Source: Candidatus Gastranaerophilales bacterium Zag_111
GTDB lineage: Bacteria > Cyanobacteriota > Vampirovibrionia > Gastranaerophilales > Gastranaerophilaceae
Direction: 5' to 3'
Length of the DNA: 32,280 bases
NCBI GenBank assembly: GCA_001899395.1
Contig: MOYD01000047.1
Coordinates: 1 to 32,280, forward strand
In this document: positions 11,963-25,900 of the stretch, piece by piece
Layout: each line of letters begins with the position of its first letter
How positions within the stretch are numbered: the stretch's first letter is position 1
Program-made: the position numbers and the translations under genes
Notes under the pieces: generated by a model
Databases searched by the model: none
What the model was told of the DNA's origin: nothing
What the model saw: only the letters and a program-made list of their open reading frames with translations

Positions 11963-14900
11963 TTAATAGAATAAGGGGATGTATTTTATTTTAATGTCGT
12001 TCAGTAGATCCGCAAGCGCCCAATAGAGTGGGGGAAAGTTGGACCAAAAATAGTTGCATGCATACCACCACCAGTCACTAATGTCGCCATTGATGCAACG
12101 AAGTGGAAGCCCCATCACGTCATAATCACTATTTTGCGGCGCCAAACCAGTATCTGGATCAAAATATACACCCTTTAATGATGTCCAACTATAGTATGAC
12201 GAGATCATTTGCCAAATCTCATCAAGCATTTTGAGATAAGTATATTCTGCGTTTTGCTGCCGCTTTTTATAAATTGAATATGCAAAATAGTTTTCTTCTG
12301 CTGGATAGAGGGCTAGATTAGCTTCATACCAGACTTTAAATTTTAACCATTCATCTATATTATCTTCTGAACCTCGAACATTATCTTCCCCTGTAATAAT
12401 CGCGTTTGAATATAGATTTACATAATTATAATCTTCAGTTGGCGGCTCCACTTTTCTCATTAAGGCATTATCCTCTGAAACTGTGCCACTATATTTTTCA
12501 TGAGAAGAAGATACTTTAATCTCATCAACAGTCTTATAAGTATCAAAAAATTCCTCTCTTGCACGAACATTGACAAAATCAAACAATTGCTGAACTTCTC
12601 TCTTATTACTATTGACGTCGCCGCCATATCCCCAATCATAAGGTCTAGCATCACGCCATCTTTTGCCGCCCCAAAGTGATTCATCCATTACAGGTTCAAT
12701 TGCAAGCATTGACCAGCCAGGCGGCAATTTAAACCACTTGCCTTTTGTAATAGCATCATTCATTATGTTCTTTGAGGGCTTATAAGTAAATTCCATTCCA
12801 TAAGGATTTTCAGTTGCATAAAGCATACGAGTTTCAGAATTGAAATAATATCTGTCGTCAAGTAGGTCGTTTAAGCAGCCGCCATCACCTAATTGTTCAT
12901 CTAGTTTTTTCTTTAGAGTTGAATAATTATCATCTAATAAAGAACTATCATAATAGATTTGCCGCCCTATGAATACTGCATCAGGATCTTCTTCAATTGC
13001 AGCGAGATACTGAGTAATCAAATCAACACCAGACAACTCACTCTAATCAATTTCAATATAATCTTCTGTCGTCCATTCTGGATATTTAAAAGCATTGAAT
13101 ACTTCTGAATCGTAATCTAAATCACGAGTATCAGATAAGATATATTCTGCTGGACAATTTATAAAATCATAAATAAAATCTTCAATTGAATAAGCACCAT
13201 CTGAACCAGTATATGGCGAATCATATTCTCCACTCTCTAGATCTTCTAGCATTGGCTCAAAATTAGACAATAGTTTTCTTAATGTATCCCAATAAAGTTC
13301 ATATTCTTCCTCAGGAGAAATACACTAATCAAAACATTCCTAATATCTATTTGCAAAAGCAATTCCATCTTCAAAATCTAAATCTTCAAGTTTTTCTCTA
13401 AAAGTATCGACTCTATCTCCAATCACACCATTCTCACTAACATGATAGAACATTCTAACAAAATTAACAAGAGGATGACTCATATCTGCAATTGTAGTTT
13501 TAGTTGAACTATTTTGCCAGAACGAATCAGGCATCATATCCTTCCATAGTTCAGTATTAACCCATTCACCTGTTACAGTTTTGTTGCCGCGCCACTGTAT
13601 TGTCTGCCAATAAAATAGTTTAATAAAGTGCGCCATTCTTTGTCTAGGAATTGGCTCTACATAATAACAATGATGTGGATGAGCTTCACCGAGTAAATCA
13701 TATTTTAGAACGCCATCAAACCAAGCTTCAAGCACATCGGTATGTAAGTTAAAAGCAACTTTTAAGCTTTCAGTCCAGCTTTCATCTGTTCCATCTCTAT
13801 GCGCTTTATAATCAGATTTTGAAGTATCCCAATCTTCATATTGCCAAGAATAATCTTCTTCATCTCGTGACCAATGATTGTTCCAAATCTTTTGCCAATG
13901 TTTGTCAGCAACCATATGACCTTCTTTTACAATTGTAATGATCTCAGTTACTGTATAGTAATCACTTGATTCTAAAACCTCTGTCGCCTTTGAAGCAGAA
14001 TCTGGTTTAACAAACCAAACTTTTTCTCCATCTGTATCATCTTCAATTGACTCAAAATCGCCATAGTAATCTCTAATATTCTGAATCAATTGCGCTCTGT
14101 CAAAATAGCGGCGGCGAAAATATTTACTACCATATTTGAAAGGAGTATCATCATCAGGATCGTAAGTTGTCAATCCGCACCAGTCAACAGCATTTGGAAT
14201 AGATAATCTCTCAACATTAAAACGTCTAATTCTAAATTTTTCGCCGCCACGGCAAGACCAAAAAGCTCTTTTATTCTCATTAAACTTAATCTCCCACTCG
14301 ATAGGTAGGTCGCCAGGATTATAAACTAGAACTCTAGTTCCAATCATAGGACGATAGTTATTATATCCAATATCTGTATTAATGAAATCAACTTTAGAAT
14401 ATTGCGGCATATACATTAATTCTTGTTCGTAATCTAATGTAGGGGTAGTTAATAACTTAGCAGTTCCTTCCCATTCTGGAACATTCTCCCAATATCCTCT
14501 AACATCTACAATTGATTTCTCACCAAAATCAGTATCAAAATATAGCTCGCCGCCCTGTACTTGTTCAATTGTAGGGAATCCTGTTTTCCAAACTGTTTTG
14601 TCATTTGGATCCCAGTAACGATCTATTGTTTCGCCAGATTCATAGTTCTCATAACTCAAATATCCAGCACGATTTTGATGAGGTTCATCACGTAAATCAC
14701 GACTTGTATCACCTTCACCGCCAACATAGTTACTAGGGTTTGTATTGTAGTGATACTTTATATCTTCAGGTAGTACTCTACCATAATTTTTATTTCTAGA
14801 AGAATTAATAAAATAATTCTCTTCATTTTCATTGTCATTTATAATACATTCTGGTGGCTTAGTTAAGTAATAATCTGCCGCAGTAACAACATATTTATCA

Positions 14901-16782
14901 AATCCAAAGGCATAAGGAAAGTAACATTTGAATTTTAAAGTTCCTTCGCCCTTGTAAACACGTTGTCCAGAATCTTTATCTATAAAACAAATATACTTGA
15001 ATTCTGGCGCAGAGCTTATTTTAGCCCGCCAATGCTTATACGGTTCTTCCTGTAATATTAAATTTAGAGCATTACTTCTAAATCAATTAACCATGCTATG
15101 GTTTTAAAGGGTATTACAGATACCCCTTGCAGCTATGTTAATAGCCGCATTAACGTCTCTATCCAATTCTAAGCCACAATCACATTTAAAGATTCTATCC
15201 TCTAGTGTGATATAATGCCGTTTGTGACAATTACTGCATTCCTAACTGGTATATGCAGGATTAACTTCTACAAAATGGGTTCCAAATTTCAAGCATTTCC
15301 ACTTAAGTTTCTCGACAAAATTGCCTCTTGGCGCTATCATCTATAGCCGTCTACGATTTCTATTTGAGCTTACTATTTTAGCATTAGTTAAATCCTCAAC
15401 CGCTACGTTATAATCTCTACATAATTTAGTTGTAGTTTGTTCAATAAAATTATTCTTAAGATTATCGAAACGTTCATAAGCTTTGCTTAATTTATTAAGA
15501 ACTTTTTTGTAATTATTAGAATCTTTTTTCTTTTTATCTTTAATTGATTGCAGTTTACGAATACGCATATATTCTCTAGAAACTTCTTCTGGATAATTAA
15601 GATATTCACCTGTTGAAGTCGTCATAAAATTTTTAATCCCCCAGTCAAGCCCTATAAAAGTTGTTTCTTTTTGCTTCACATTAATATTATCTTCATAACA
15701 TCCCGTAAGATACCACTTACCATTTTTGTAAGTATATCTTGGCTCTTTTATTTCAGTAATATTAAATTTTTCTATGTACTGCTTTGCAACTTTTATTTTA
15801 GATATACCTTTTACGGAAAATTTTTGATTAGATGGAATTTTTATAAGTCCATTTTCAATCTTTTGCACCTAAGATGGTATATAGAATGATTGTTTATTAG
15901 GATTGTATTTATGGAATTTTGGTTTCTTGCCTGTTTTATTATATACTCTTTTTACAGATTGAGAATAATTTATTAAAACACCTTTTAACATTCTTTGCGG
16001 TAAAGGAATTTTAACTTTTTCTCTCTCATTAAAATCATTTAATAAATCCTGCTCTTTATACCCAATAATTCCAAACTGACTTACATCAGGTAAATTATCA
16101 TTAAATTTTTCTACTAAAAATTTCTCATTTTATGTGCATATTCACAATAAATAAGAAGAATTTCTTCCTATTTTTTGTTGGGATAGATTCTTATCTTAAA
16201 ACCTTTTAACATTGAGTCTCACCTCCTTTTATTTTATTTATAAGCCTATTATAACATAAAACATCTAAGAGGTCAAATTTTCGACTCACTAATTCTCTAT
16301 ATCACTATAGAGCATAGATTATATCTTCATCCTTTGTCTAAGGAGTCTATTACTTCCAGCTATTTAACTGTACTTCTTTTCAGAATAATCGTTGAACCTT
16401 TTTAATAGGCTGCTGATTGTCTCATTTTTTAATAAGATGTCCCAGCAATTCAATAGTTTTTCAATAGCAATTATTTGCTAAAGCGACCAAATTAATCGAA
16501 GGTCAAATCACACAGCTTGTCATTGGAGAACAACTGACGTATCTTGCGAAAGATTTGTTCTGTTACACTATCAAAAGCAAGATTACAAGTAAATTCTCTA
16601 TTTTTATAAATTTGCCCAAAGTAGTAAGTTCCATCGCCGCCTGGTACTTCAACAGTTTGGTCTGTAGGAGTAGGCAAGGTTCTATTAGTATATCTATTCG
16701 ATGAAACTACAACTTTCAATTGCAAATCATTTGTATGAATGCCATCAAATGTAAAACCAAGAAAGTCTTGATGCTCAACCAT
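11963..16782 (-). CDS. Giant distal tail (Dit-like) protein, interrupted by an IStron
   Basis: Exon 1 is 16782-16495 and exon 2 is 15049-11963; joined they give 1124 aa with TAG=Gln, ending at TAA 11963-11965. ATG 16780-16782 follows AGAGGTGATATAA. Exon 1 is a textbook Dit N-terminus (FLGFTFDGIHTNDLQL, TVEVPGGDGTYYFGQIYKNR, FRKIRQLFSNDKLCDLTFD). The family continuation, E-x-PYK then KYICF and RVYKGEGT-KFKCYFPYAFG, appears only at 15049 (EEPYKHWRAKISSAPEFKYICF), which fixes the splice junction at FD|EE. Dit forms the hexameric ring that joins tail tube and tip. Usual Dits have about 250 residues; the extra 850, rich in Trp/Tyr/Asp, resemble the carbohydrate-binding insertions of evolved Dits only in principle. 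TAGs occur at 13340, 13325 and just after 13036. Confidence 0.87.
15050..15093 (-). repeat. IStron right end / omega-RNA 3' hairpin (copy 1)
   Basis: The final 44 nt of the IStron contain a hairpin, TTTAGA paired with TCTAAA around the loop AGTAATGC, then TTTAATATTACAG and the splice site. The same element ends intron 22826-23268, with one compensatory pair change. In TnpB systems the guide RNA scaffold ends here and the guide is the adjoining host sequence. Confidence 0.75.
15065..16212 (-). CDS. tnpB: TnpB RNA-guided nuclease (TAG-recoded, -1 frame change)
   Basis: ATG 16210-16212 follows GGAGGTGAG. The protein starts MLKGFKIRIYPNKKQEE (Q = TAG 16168-16170). After residue 32 the frame must slip back by one base to continue as LVEKFNDNLPDV and so on to TAA 15065-15067, about 382 aa in total. 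All RuvC residues are present: D190 in GLDWGIKNF, E273 in VAVEDL and D353 in LDRDVNAAIN. The zinc finger has C326, C329, C344 and C346. The conserved NPAYTSQECSNC has its Q (324) encoded by TAG 15242-15244; further TAGs are 15869-15871 and 15341-15343. TnpB cuts DNA matching a guide copied from next to the element's right end. The slip sits on A-AAT-TTT (16117-16123), so it could be programmed frameshifting, a disabling deletion or a homopolymer error. The last residues overlap the right-end hairpin. Confidence 0.87.
16280..16494 (-). ncRNA. Group I intron catalytic core of the IStron
   Basis: On the minus strand the four classic core segments appear in order: P (AATTGCTGGGA, 16440-16450), Q (AATCAGCAGCC, 16409-16419), R (GTTCAACGATTA, 16386-16397) and S (AAGATATAATCT, 16316-16327). 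P1 can form between the exon end CGAU and intron GUCG, with the required U-G pair at the splice site. The core is near-identical in its P segment region to the intron at 22826-23268. Confidence 0.88.
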
Positions 16783-19900: not shown

Positions 19901-22900
19901 CAAATAAATCATCTAATGACTATTCAACACCAGACATTGTTTTTATTGTGAAGTCGGCTAAATCAGCAGCTTCTAAAGTAGCAATATATTCATCCGCAAA
20001 AGCTTCAGCTTCCTGTTTTCCTAAGGCGCCCTCTAAATCTTCATTTGAAACCAAATCAATTAAAGCTTCTCTTAAATCCGATTTTGATTCATAAGAATCA
20101 AGAGCAGTAAAATCAAAACCTATAACTACATTAGATACCTCATCTGAAAAATCCTCAGTTATTGAATTCAAAGAGTTTGCTAAAATTCTCTATTTCTCTT
20201 CTAGCTATACCGCACCAGTTTCATATTCTTCACCCATATTTGCAAAATAATTACTTATTGCATCTACAGCAGTCATTGTTAAATTATCATAATTTAATCC
20301 ATATTCACTTAATTGTTCAAAAATCCCATCATTTGTATAATTCTCTGCATCAACTAACTCATTTACAATAGCTTTTTCATCTTCAGTGGCGTTCTTCCAA
20401 AAGTCAGCAAGATTATTATATCCAAGCTCAGAAGTAACATATTCACTCAAATAATCTTGATATTCTGATGCTGTCATTTCATCAAAATTAGTTGTAAATT
20501 CTGAATAAAAATCAGTTAAAAGGGACGATATGTCAGTAGATTCTAAATCTACCCCTAATTGAGTAAGAATCATACTCATTGCTTGTTGATAAAAGTTGTT
20601 TGCGAACTCGGCGTCATCAAGATCTACAAGAACTTCTTCATAATATTCCTGTACGGTTTGACCTTGAGCTTCTGCTAAATCTCTATATACTGCTGAAAGC
20701 GCATTTTTTTCATCGTTTGTCAATGAACTCCAGTTGGTCTAGTTCCATCCATTAGAAATGCCTTCCATTTGATCTAAAATTCTACTAGCTGTTATTGTAG
20801 AATCTTGCCCTCCAACAGTTGTATATTCAAATGTTACCTTTTTTAACTCATCAGCAGTTGTACCAAATTCTTCAGCCAAGTCCTTCATCATATCTTCATA
20901 TGCGTTCTCAGCCTTGTCTTCATTACCCTAAGCAGAACTTCCAAACTTACCACTTAAGTAGCTATCAATCTTATCATTATACTCATCTATTAATGCAGTA
21001 GCTTCACTACTCAATACTGCCTATTCGCTCTCTGTTAAATCAGGAAATTTCTCTTCAACATAGGTTGAAATAGAATCAAATAAATTATAAAAATCAAAAG
21101 ACAAATCTTCTAATTCCTAAGCCGCGTCCACTACAGTTTCTCGCATAGTTTTTGCTAATGTTTCTACTTCTTCGTATCCATCTAAAACTTGTTCGTTCCC
21201 TGTAAAGGCGTAAGAATAAATGGCTCTTAACTACTTCATCTATGCATCTGTTAATTCTTCAACTTCACTATCAATATTATCTTGATAATATGACAATAAA
21301 CTATTCTAGTCTACAGTAAAAGAGGTTCCTCTACTGGATAAGGTAATCCCCTCGGCGGTCGTTCCACCAAACCAAGCTTCTCCCCCATAACTATCATCAG
21401 TGTAATTAGTTACTTCAACACTAACATTACTTTTTTCAACTGCGGCAGATATTAATCCAGCATAATCTTCCCCAAATCTTTCATAATCACTATAATCAGT
21501 AGAACTGTATGTGTCACTATTTTCAGAAAAAGAAAGGTCTGAAGCTACACCCTACATTGTACTTAAAACATCAGCCTGATTCTATAAATTTTCAGTATAA
21601 ACAGTTTGTGAAGCTGTTGCTCTAGCCGCCAACTCGGCTTCTTGATTAAGACTTTCAATTTTTTCGTCCAATAATTCATTATGAAGTCTTAACTGTCCTG
21701 TTTCTTCATTATAATAAGAAATCAATTCAGGATACTCATTCTACAGAGTTTCAATCATATCATCCCATTCTTCTTGCTCTTCATCAGATAAAATCGTTTT
21801 ACCATTAAGATCTTCGTAAATATCCTAAATATCCTCTAAAGTATCTGCACTTTCACTTAAATCACTATAAGAACTTTTTAAAGAAGTTATATTTTCCTCT
21901 TGCTCCTCAATCTTATCATTAAGTTCAGAGAGCTAATTTGAAACTTTTCCACTATTCCATTTATTATACGCAGCAACAACTAATGCTACCCCCGCTGCCA
22001 GTGCAGCAACGCCAGCGACTATTAATAATAACGGCCATAGTACAGCCCACTCAGTTGCTGCCGCTGTCGTATTACCAGCAATTACTGCTGATATAAGTTT
22101 TACAAACTATGGCAATATAGACGTCAATCCCGATGCAAGTGTAGAGAAAAAGACTGTTGATGTATCAGCTCCTCCTGCTATCATTACTGCTGCAGTTGCA
22201 GCCTATGTTGCCACAGTTGAAAATGCATCACCAATAGATAATCCAGCTTTTTCAGTTTTTTCTTTACTTTCTTCTGTTTTATCATTCATATCATCTTCAG
22301 CTATCGACACTTCATCCATTGCATCGACTGTTATGTCAACAACCGTTCCAACTTCATCTTCAACTTCTGAACTATTAAAAGGTAAAAACTAAGGGCTTTC
22401 ATCCTATTCTCCTTCAGAAGAGGCTGTAATAATATCTAAATCTTTTAGCCCTTGCTCATCTGAGTCATCTTCATGGCTTTCTTTGTAAATTACATCTATT
22501 ACAACTGGTGATTTATTCTCTATTTCACTAATAGATCCAATTATATTTTGAACCTCTTTTTTTACTTCGCTTTCATTAAGAGAAACTTTTCCTTTTATAA
22601 TTGATTTTTCTTTTAATTCTTCAAATTTTTTTCCTATAGAAGATATTCCCTACGTAATAGGTTGAAGAACTCCTGTTATTAAAGTACTCGCTAACTACCT
22701 TCCGACTACAAGGATTGCTGCGCCTAAAGCAACAATACCAGCAGTTGGAATGTTATTTAATTTATCAAATAAATTACTAACTATATCTAAAACATTCTTA
22801 AAAATATCACTACTTAGCAAATTCTCTGTCATATTAAACCTAGCCCATTACCTCTAGACCAATTCACTTGATTTTAGTAAAACACTTCCATGTCCAATTC

Positions 22901-25900
22901 CATTATAGGTTATTAAGGTAACGATCTTTTGAGAGGTTCTTTGGCAAAAGACCAAATATATAATAAAACCCCACTATTCAGAATAATAATATTTTATTTG
23001 AGCATTATATTTAATGGAATTGTCTCTCAAAACTCTTAATAACCATCTAAAACCATCGTCTTTCTCCTCTAAGACGACCAATTCTCTACATTACTGTAAA
23101 GCATAGATTATATCTTCACCCCTTAAGGGGACTATTACTTCCAACTATTTAGTTGTACTTCCATATGGAATAATCGTTGAACCTAAATCGGCTGCTGATT
23201 GTCCTCTTGGGACTTCCCAGCAATTCAATAGTTTTTCAATAACGATTGCTCGTTAAAGAGGCCTTTTGACCTAAATTCTTCCCACTTTGTAGAAATCTAG
23301 TTTAATTTATATTCTACAGTGTCTGCATATTTGCTAAATTGTTGATCGGCTTGACCTTCTGAGTCTGCCGCAATATCTTCTAGTTCAAGGGTATGATCGT
23401 AGTCATCCAGTAAAGCGATTAGACGCGATTGCTCGTTAATTCAGACAGGTTTCCCTATCTGACAGACTATATCTTCATTGTTAGGCACTTCGGGATTAAT
23501 CCCTACTAATTAGTCGTTGAACTTTATACTTCATCTATATTCTTCCAATAATATCCGCAGCTACAGTATCCTTTATGAATAGCACTCCATATTGATGCAG
23601 GCTTAATACCCATATCTCTTGCTGCGTCAGCATTATTTAAATAAATTTTTACTAATTTTCCTTCTTTATCATAACAGGCAGTTTTCTAAAATTTTAAGGT
23701 TTTTGTATCATAAATTGCTTTCATTACATTTTCCTAATTTGAAACATTTTCTAAATTACACAATCTATTATCTAACTTATTACCATTTATATGATTTATA
23801 ATATCCTGTTTATCGCCAACCCATACTTCCCATACCAACTTATGTCCAAAATGACTATGTTTTCTTTTATCGTAGGTTAAGCAATATTCTCGATATCCAG
23901 CATCAGTAATCTTACCTTTTGAAATTTTATTTGTTTCTTTATTTTTTACTCTACCTAAATTCGATACAAGATATCTTGTATCTCTAAAAGGTTTCCATTC
24001 TTCTATATTTAAATCATATTCTTGATAATCTGTGTGATCTTTACCAGAAGGCTTCTTGTTTTTCTTTAAATTATTTTCAGAAATACTAACCCATTGTAAA
24101 TTTTCTATAGAATTATCTAACCTATTATTATTAATATGATGGACATAAGGTAAATTATTTGGATTTGGAATAAAAGCCTCAGCAACCAATCGATGCTAAC
24201 TTCTTGAATATCTTTTCCCTTTCCAATTTAGGTCAAAAGATAAATATCCGTTCCTTACCGTTCCTTTATAAAAAGAGCCTGTCTTTTCACTCATAAGTCG
24301 TCCATCATCATATATCCTAAAATAAGTCTCTTCTCCGTTTATATAAACTTTTCTGTACATTATTCTTCACCTCTTCTTAGTAAAGAATAAAATGAAGTAT
24401 CTTAGCTGCGGATTGCCCAATTTTTTCTATTTTTACCATACCAAAATCATTACTTTTGCCCTATAACATATCACTATCTATAGTTGGTAAGAAAAACTCT
24501 AAGGGGATTCCCGCAATTCACCTAATTTATTTCTTCTCAGTTTTACGCCGCGAGACGAAGTCGGTTACAATCATCACCTAGCCGACTTCCGGCTATTGTC
24601 GTTGCAAGCTCTTGTTATTACTAACAAAATAGACTATATCATGAGAATCAAAATTCTCCCTATTACTTCCGATTGCAAAATCGTACTTCCTTTCAGAATA
24701 GTCGTTGAACCTTTACCTAATAAGGTAAGTGGCTGCGGATTTTCCAAAACTTTAACTTGTTACTATACCTAAGGTCTTTATCCTTCGCCGCAAAAATATT
24801 ACTATTTTTGCTTAGTATTAAAGTTCTAAGGAGGTTCCCGCAATTTAATTGGTTAAGATACCTTGTTTATTCTTTTGTGAAATCATTATATCATGGGGAC
24901 TGATTAATGATGACACACGTAGTTACCACAATATCTTTGGGTATTCCTATCCAGCGTGTCCCAAGACGTACCCAAGTCATTGATTACGTCATCGAGATCT
25001 CTAATTTGTCCTGTTGAATCTCTCAAGGCAATTCCAACTGATTTCAATGCGGTTTCAACATCGTTTACATCAAGTTCAGCATCGGAATCTTCTTGAGAGA
25101 TATTCGTTTGCATTTCTGTAAAATTGGCTACACAATTCTATAATTTTCATTATAGATTAGACTATATCTTCTCTTACGAGTTTTTCATTTCGGACTGTAA
25201 ATCCTACTCGGCTAAATTCATCACCGATAGTCGTTGAACGTTTGTTCTTCGCTGCTGATTAGCAGTTAAGCTTTCCAGCAATTAGAAAAATTTATAGACA
25301 ACTGTATCTGGTCAATCGTCTTCAAGGACGTGCCTATGTTCTCCGCACTCTCCTAAGTGGTCTCTACCATCTTAGTCAAGAAAGCGCTTGTGTTTTCGAA
25401 GGACATACCAGCGTTAGATGCTATGCTGGCCGTTCTACTCATTGCGGATGCGATATCCTCAACAGAGGCTGCGGCACTTGCGGCCAAGGTTGAGTATACG
25501 TCCGTTACATGAGAACCTTCTTCCATTTCCATTTTAAAACCACGAATTGCAGCTGTCATTTCTTGTGTTGCAGTTGAATAGTCAATGCCAGCAAGAGTTG
25601 CCAGCTTCATTGTGTCCTCTGTCAATGACAAAGCTTCGGCTGTATCCAAGCCCATAGTGATAGGTAATCCTTTGATACTATCTCCAAATTTTCCCCCACT
25701 CCACACCGTACGTGACAGTTTCCCGTCATACGGCGTTCCATCATATAATTATGACTTGTGCCTATCCCTCCACTACTTATTATCATAGTTTCATCGGTAC
25801 TGTGGCACTACTCTCACAGTTCTTAATCAGCTTATACAATATTGCTTTCGTCTGAAATTAGTATTGGATTGTAAACTCCACTAATCGAACTGCTTTCTAC

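What the first reader, a model, noticed from the sequence alone, without database searches (positions are those of the whole stretch)
15050..16494. IStron in a recoded phage dit gene, with a TnpB adapted to TAG=Gln
A complete IStron (group I core plus tnpB, no tnpA) sits in the most conserved Dit motif, LTFD|EEPYK. The spliced frame is exact. Its tnpB itself uses TAG as Gln at four or more codons, so the element cannot make full-length TnpB in a standard-code cell and has lived in recoded genomes for some time, or came from another recoded phage. I know of no described IStron tied to an alternative genetic code.
Basis: partly seen in the sequence, partly recalled or inferred. Interest (0 to 1): 0.88.

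Follow-up and report, generated by a model that had tools for sequence, protein, structure and literature searches.

The report
IStron family inside TAG-recoded phages
A self-splicing intron that carries an RNA-guided DNA-cutting gene sits in a tail gene of a phage that appears to read the stop codon TAG as glutamine; intact relatives in related phages need the same altered code to make the cutting protein, so the element looks tied to the phages' private genetic code.

Summary
The IStron is real: minus strand 16494-15050 interrupts a phage dit gene at LTFD|EEPYK. It has a group I core (55.6 bits), a TnpB and an exact exon join (64.6 bits to Dit joined, 44.4 for exon 1 alone). No Y1 TnpA was found in 7 of 7 genomes or records searched. 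One correction: the copy is not complete. Its tnpB changes frame after residue 32, so the four in-frame TAGs lie in two pieces (1 + 3). Relatives rescue the main idea: four tnpB copies on two phage contigs of one metagenome are open throughout except for 6, 4, 3 and 1 TAGs; two are IStrons, and one contig has a CUA tRNA. Glutamine is nine-fold enriched at the TAG columns. New: the tape-measure gene holds a tnpB-less sister intron (443 nt; core 78% identical, same 3' end) whose splice junction makes a TAG codon. Against: no suppressor tRNA in the window's own bin, no RNA data. Best reading: a phage-borne IStron lineage whose RNA-guided nuclease can be made only while TAG is decoded; this copy probably keeps splicing and has lost the nuclease.

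The parts
16495..16782 (-). dit exon 1 (96 codons, ends ...CDLTFD)
   Evidence: phrog_33 distal tail protein Dit 44.4 bits; PF05709 24.2 bits
15050..16494 (-). whole IStron / intron, 1445 nt
   Evidence: exact exon join; last exon base T(U), intron ends ...ATTACAG
16295..16494 (-). group I ribozyme core (the Rfam match starts in exon 1 at 16515)
   Evidence: RF00028 55.6 bits, E 6e-13
16484..16498 (-). P1 worked out by hand: exon CGAU with intron GUCG, U.G at the 5' splice site
   Evidence: sequence
16248..16276 (-). promoter-like site before tnpB inside the intron, TTGACC-17-TATAAT, 11 of 12
   Evidence: 8 sites found against 8.7 expected at the looser cut-off, so suggestive only
16117..16212 (-). 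tnpB piece 1, residues 1-32, one TAG
15107..16117 (-). tnpB piece 2, 337 residues in the next frame, three TAG
15050..15148 (-). four hairpin stems over the end of tnpB and the 3' end (omega-RNA-like): 15148-15129, 15128-15106, 15101-15091, 15083-15062
   Evidence: Rfam IS605-orfB-I only 17.7 bits against gathering 94.2
11966..15049 (-). dit exon 2 and continuation (1028 codons, three TAG)
22826..23268 (-). sister intron without tnpB in the tape-measure gene, 443 nt; spliced frame ...KWEEFR-TAG-NLLSSDIFK
   Evidence: RF00028 61.4 bits at 23278-23084; core 78% identical to the IStron core over 200 columns; 3' end 78.6% over 42 nt, E 8e-4, and frame join

Best explanation
It is an IS200/IS605-like IStron belonging to a small TnpB lineage found here only in phage contigs. 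The group I ribozyme removes the element from the dit transcript so that the tail protein is made (inferred from anatomy). In intact relatives TnpB, with an RNA from the element's 3' end, would be an RNA-guided nuclease whose guide is the sequence next to the 3' end; it would cut copies of the target that lack the element and so drive copying of the element into them, as an intron homes (inferred from what is known of TnpB). Because the intact copies on the TAG-recoded contigs carry TAG codons ahead of the catalytic residues, active nuclease can be made only while TAG is decoded as an amino acid, which ties the element to recoded phages and probably to the stage of infection in which the code is switched. 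The copy in the window has a frameshifted tnpB and most likely survives as a plain self-splicing intron.
For: Core, TnpB and exact exon join. Intact relatives: L009 6 TAG, L008 4, L010 first copy 3, L010 second copy 1, no TAA or TGA inside; in these four the first TAG precedes the first of the three catalytic columns (191, 274, 356). L009 and the first L010 copy have a core upstream (Rfam 34.3 bits, below gathering 50, E 4.3e-7 for L009; the L010 core is 87% identical to it) and exact exon joins, into a TAG-bearing ORF and an MFS transporter (MFS_1 102.7 bits). L015 has a core of 52.8 bits. TAG as Gln: at the 13 TAG columns 16 of 74 other cells are Gln, 1.8 expected. CUA tRNA on the contig of L008 and L010. 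Nine phage TnpB rows lie on one side of a 100/100 branch from six bacterial rows. Gene-drive action of IS200/605 TnpB in plasmids is reported in PMC11870625 (abstract seen).
Against: No RNA or protein data. The window's tnpB is frameshifted, and so is the copy on C24. No CUA tRNA among the 46 tRNAs listed for G000. The four intact, clearly recoded copies come from two contigs of one metagenome and may be one phage population. For L012-L015 (one TAG each; four near-identical contigs) recoding is doubtful: TAG share 0-0.10 in the L015 ORFs counted, no CUA tRNA seen at the tRNA loci of its contig. The omega-RNA is only inferred, with an Rfam score far below threshold; C24's 3' end lacks the terminal hairpin. 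TAG positions shared by window and L009 (2 columns) are not significant: 6 columns are Gln in both, with 2 and 3 TAGs. The Gln enrichment rests on related rows. The viral scans used patterns containing DWGIK, so more divergent carriers would be missed.
Confidence: 0.7

Rival explanations
1. Ordinary decaying IStron: the TAGs in the window copy are stop mutations in a dead tnpB and say nothing about adaptation.
For: The window tnpB is frameshifted, as is the C24 copy; the IS part of IStrons often decays while splicing stays (PMC4227781, passages seen).
Against: Four relatives are open throughout except for 1-6 TAGs, with no TAA or TGA. Gln is enriched nine-fold at TAG columns. The TAG share of Gln codons in the window tnpB piece (0.21) lies within that of the other phage ORFs there (0.00-0.67).
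Confidence: 0.13
2. The window tnpB is expressed through programmed -1 frameshifting at the A-AAT-TTT run, so the copy is functional.
For: A -1 slip there gives RNF-LVEKF, as in relatives.
Against: None of the six relatives compared at this place has the shift; the C24 copy is broken at another place, as decay would give; no stimulatory structure was tested.
Confidence: 0.1
3. The tnpB element and the group I intron met more than once: the window IStron was made from the phage's own intron pool and not inherited as a unit with L009-type IStrons.
For: The window core is 78% identical to the tnpB-less tape-measure intron and 69% to a core on C24, but 61-63% to the L009/L010 cores and 51-52% to L015/L038; in a core tree it groups with the former at 0.81 and L009, L010, L015 and L038 group at 0.96. 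tnpB also occurs without a core directly upstream (L008, second L010 copy, C24).
Against: The tape-measure intron shares the IStron 3' end, so it may equally be an IStron that lost tnpB; short alignments, modest support; two other C24 cores are 65% identical to the window core.
Confidence: 0.35

Closest known systems
Group A IStrons (CdISt1 and kin, IS200/IS605 type), PMC4227781 (passages and sections 14 and 15 seen)
   Same: Group I core 5', ORF B after the core, U as last exon base, 3' end in CAG, loss of ORF A common, splicing kept when the IS part decays
   Different: In phage genes; TnpB about 31% identical to the best-ranked annotated ones; 5' flanks TCGAT (window), TTGGT and ATGGT (relatives), not TTGAT/ATTAT/TTTAT; 3' end ACAG, not TCAG; TAG codons in tnpB
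IStrons of Clostridium botulinum phages c-st and D-1873 (CbISt3, CbISt4), PMC4227781
   Same: IStrons carried by phages
   Different: IS607 type (group B), inserted after GG-ending sites; the term 'genetic code' does not occur in the paper
Intron-dense crAss-like phages, some TAG-recoded (PMC7886860, passages seen)
   Same: Recoded phages with many self-splicing introns in core genes
   Different: TnpB, transposase, OrfB and IS605 do not occur in its main text
TnpB genes in epsilon crAss-like phages (PMC11054128, passages seen)
   Same: TnpB in gut phages
   Different: In the passages seen not linked to group I introns; sequences not compared here

Membership tests
IStron | Group I intron core at the 5' end | tested here: met
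   RF00028 55.6 bits
IStron | IS200/IS605 or IS607 ORF B downstream of the core within the intron | tested here: met
   PF07282, PF01385; frameshifted in this copy
IStron | Exons join in frame when the element is left out | tested here: met
IStron | Splicing of the RNA in vivo | not testable with these tools
   no reads on hand
Group A IStron (IS200/IS605) | Last base of the 5' exon is U, with U.G inside P1 | tested here: met
   CTTCGAT|TAATTTGGTCG, by hand on the sequence
Group A IStron (IS200/IS605) | 5' flank TTGAT, ATTAT or TTTAT and 3' end TCAG | tested here: not met
   TCGAT and ACAG: similar, not the published motifs
Group A IStron (IS200/IS605) | Y1 TnpA (ORF A) | tested here: not met
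   PF01797 in 0 of 7 genomes or records; often truncated or missing in known IStrons too
TnpB RNA-guided nuclease | RuvC D, E, D residues and zinc ribbon | tested here: met
   (residue roles recalled)
TnpB RNA-guided nuclease | Omega-RNA overlapping the 3' end of tnpB | tested here: inconclusive
   the four stems can be drawn in 6 of 6 3' ends, but minimum-energy folds form stems 1 and 2 in 6, stem 3 in 3 and the terminal stem in 4 (not in the window); Rfam 17.7 bits below 94.2
Genetic code 15 (TAG=Gln) phage | Long ORFs opened only by reading TAG through | tested here: met
   coverage by ORFs of 150+ codons over window 1-27100: 0.50 standard, 0.89 TAG open, 0.52 TGA open
Genetic code 15 (TAG=Gln) phage | Suppressor tRNA with CUA anticodon | tested here: not met
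   0 of 46 tRNAs listed in G000; phage may be incomplete; present on relative contig G407

The most novel reading that the evidence does not exclude
A phage-confined IStron lineage whose RNA-guided homing nuclease is switched on by the phage's own change of genetic code: TAG codons ahead of the catalytic residues keep TnpB silent in a standard-code cell and let it act only after TAG is captured for glutamine, when many phage genomes are present to be converted. In the tape-measure copy the splice junction itself creates a TAG codon, so correct splicing and correct decoding would depend on each other.
Probability: 0.33. Interest if true: 0.82.

Novelty: new variant of a known kind. Interest (0 to 1): 0.6.

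Why it matters
It joins three things that the paper searches made here did not show together (listings): an IStron, an RNA-guided TnpB nuclease and a reassigned stop codon. If right, an alternative genetic code acts as a barrier and a timer for a selfish element. That is directly testable, and the lineage supplies TnpBs about 30% identical to the best-ranked annotated ones.

Tried and rejected
Relatives of the joined Dit in viral contigs: 6 stretches, none confirmed. DNA match of the element in INPHARED phages: none. Genome-contig scan with the TnpB alignment: 58 stretches, none confirmed; its patterns are narrow, so this is weak alone. Rfam on whole L008, L009, L010, L012, L015 and L016 listed nothing up to E 0.01, yet short slices of L009 and L015 matched, so the whole-locus scan had missed them. 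Shared TAG columns as proof of common descent: not significant, dropped. The count of structure pairs was not run, because the alignment did not register the terminal stem. No structure prediction was run; IS607-type TnpA was not searched. L015's host gene looked like a terminase large subunit to my eye, but neither Pfam nor PHROGs names it so, and its exact splice junction was not worked out. The contig of L016 looks standard-code and that of L038 is unclear.

In one search I looked at 19 bacterial loci (L044-L062); my script kept 6 and dropped 13, and the tree warned of a long branch (L016). Alignment A1 contains phage rows themselves, so their scores are inflated against bacterial ones. Cut-offs differed: 1e-30, 1e-40, 1e-25; the samples overlap.

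Full report
What is there. On the minus strand a phage dit gene is split between 16495 and 15049. Exon 1 (96 codons) is a Dit N-terminus (phrog_33, 44.4 bits). Joining the flanks gives LTFD-EEPYKHW in frame and raises the Dit score to 64.6 bits in one stretch; exon 2 alone scores nothing. Thirteen Paenibacillus phage records hold Dit genes that align in one piece across the junction (28-31% identity). The 1445-nt insert starts with a group I core (55.6 bits, E 6e-13), with CGAU|...GUCG as P1 by hand, and ends ATTACAG.

The nuclease gene. After the core come a promoter-like site (suggestive only) and a TnpB with PF07282 and PF01385 that aligns to solved TnpBs. The gene is not intact: residues 1-32 and the remaining 337 lie in different frames, with one and three in-frame TAGs. 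Six other long phage ORFs on the contig, about 20.9 kb, have no such break. A second tnpB on contig C24 of the same assembly (72% DNA identity), perhaps the same phage, also changes frame and lies beside a methyltransferase-like sequence (Eco57I 72.2 bits). C24 is TAG-rich in parts and carries six tRNAs and a tmRNA. Four host-like contigs gain little from opening TAG; RF1 is present (489.9 bits, over the cut-off), with a second, weaker hit that I take to be RF2.

Intact relatives. Five scans of viral contigs with TnpB queries returned nine contigs in all, one of them C24 itself; all five pattern sets contained DWGIK, so more divergent carriers would be missed. L008 and two copies in L010 (contig G407) and L009 (contig G406), both contigs from metagenome 3300031867, are open throughout except for 4, 3, 1 and 6 TAGs. 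In these four the first TAG precedes the first catalytic column, and every TAG-bearing row compared has a TAG before the last one (columns 191, 274, 356). At the 13 TAG columns Gln makes up 16 of 74 other cells against 1.8 expected; the rows are related, so cells are not independent. G407 encodes a tRNA with a CUA anticodon. L009 and the first L010 copy have a group I core and exact exon joins, the second into an MFS transporter gene. L008, the second L010 copy and C24 show no core directly upstream, so the same kind of tnpB also travels without the intron. L012-L015 carry one TAG each and a core of 52.8 bits in L015; recoding of that phage is doubtful. The matched tnpB stretches of L016 and L038 hold no TAG.

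Bacterial relatives. No match at 1e-30 in 58 relatives and none at 1e-40 in 381 other genomes of the class. In the phylum 104 of 385 other genomes match at 1e-25, the best at 155 bits, E 3.6e-45, with no stop inside, against 514-680 bits for the full-length phage rows, most of which are in the model. Best-ranked phage and plasmid records reach 31.0% and 30.7% identity, and 308 of 308 and 2050 of 2050 matching records are below 60%. In a tree, nine phage rows lie on one side of a 100/100 branch from six bacterial rows.

3' end. Four stems over the end of tnpB can be drawn in 6 of 6 3' ends (stem 1 with one mismatch in L009; in L015 a different hairpin stands in its place), and the terminal stem keeps pairing while its letters differ. 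Minimum-energy folds form stems 1 and 2 in 6 of 6, stem 3 in 3 and the terminal stem in 4, not in the window's 241-nt fold, though it forms when the last 60 nt are folded alone. C24 lacks the terminal hairpin. This resembles an omega-RNA, but Rfam's IS605-orfB-I scores only 17.7: an inference.

Sister intron. In the tape-measure gene the intron 23268-22826 (443 nt) has a core 78% identical to the IStron's and the same 3' end (78.6% over 42 nt). A blastn of its 253 nt behind the core against 11 held sequences hit only itself and that 3' end, so no tnpB remnant was seen. Its spliced frame is KWEEFR-TAG-NLLSSDIFK, the TAG being made by splicing. Either it is an IStron that lost tnpB, or tnpB joined an intron of this kind; a core tree puts the window IStron with it, not with L009-type IStrons, at modest support (0.81).

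Mechanism. Shown: anatomy, exact frames, TAG-only interruptions in the intact relatives, a contig that opens up only when TAG is read through. Inferred: splicing, guide RNA, homing, and gating of TnpB by TAG decoding. Gene drive by IS200/605 TnpB in plasmids is reported in PMC11870625 (abstract), and late expression of TAG-bearing genes in recoded phages is argued in PMC10879173 (passages), so code-gated homing is a reasonable hypothesis. Not explained: the window's own assembly shows no CUA tRNA among 46 tRNAs listed.

Literature. 'IStron' is held by 43 papers, many by chance word matches; 25 were listed. IStron with phage and genetic code: none. TnpB with phage, stop codon and recod: two papers, unrelated by title. 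The library holds openly licensed papers only, so this is limited evidence of novelty. I recall work on the conflict between IStron splicing and guide RNAs from the Sternberg group; I did not see it here.

Verdict.

Noticed in passing
window 26305-26111, 25738-25654: Group II intron parts (148.5 and 62.4 bits) in the same tape-measure gene.
   Followed up: no
window 25391-25138 and 24916-24611: Two more group I introns in the tape-measure gene (76.4 bits, and 46.4 bits, just below gathering); an HNH_3/NUMOD4 ORF with three TAGs lies at 24366-23527.
   Followed up: partly
window about 27190: The right 5 kb (NlpC/P60 and TraG-like ORFs, no TAG, Gln almost only CAG) looks like a conjugative element; the contig may be chimeric or the phage integrated there.
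   Followed up: partly
L021 15155-15430 and 15487-15778 (contig C24): Two group I introns 56 nt apart (69.3 and 66.0 bits).
   Followed up: no
L019 12473-13885 (contig C24): A group I core lies downstream of the C24 tnpB, the reverse of IStron order, and the tnpB follows a methyltransferase-like sequence.
   Followed up: partly
L010 4379-5940 (contig G407): An IStron near the start of an MFS transporter gene on a phage contig that uses TAG elsewhere.
   Followed up: partly
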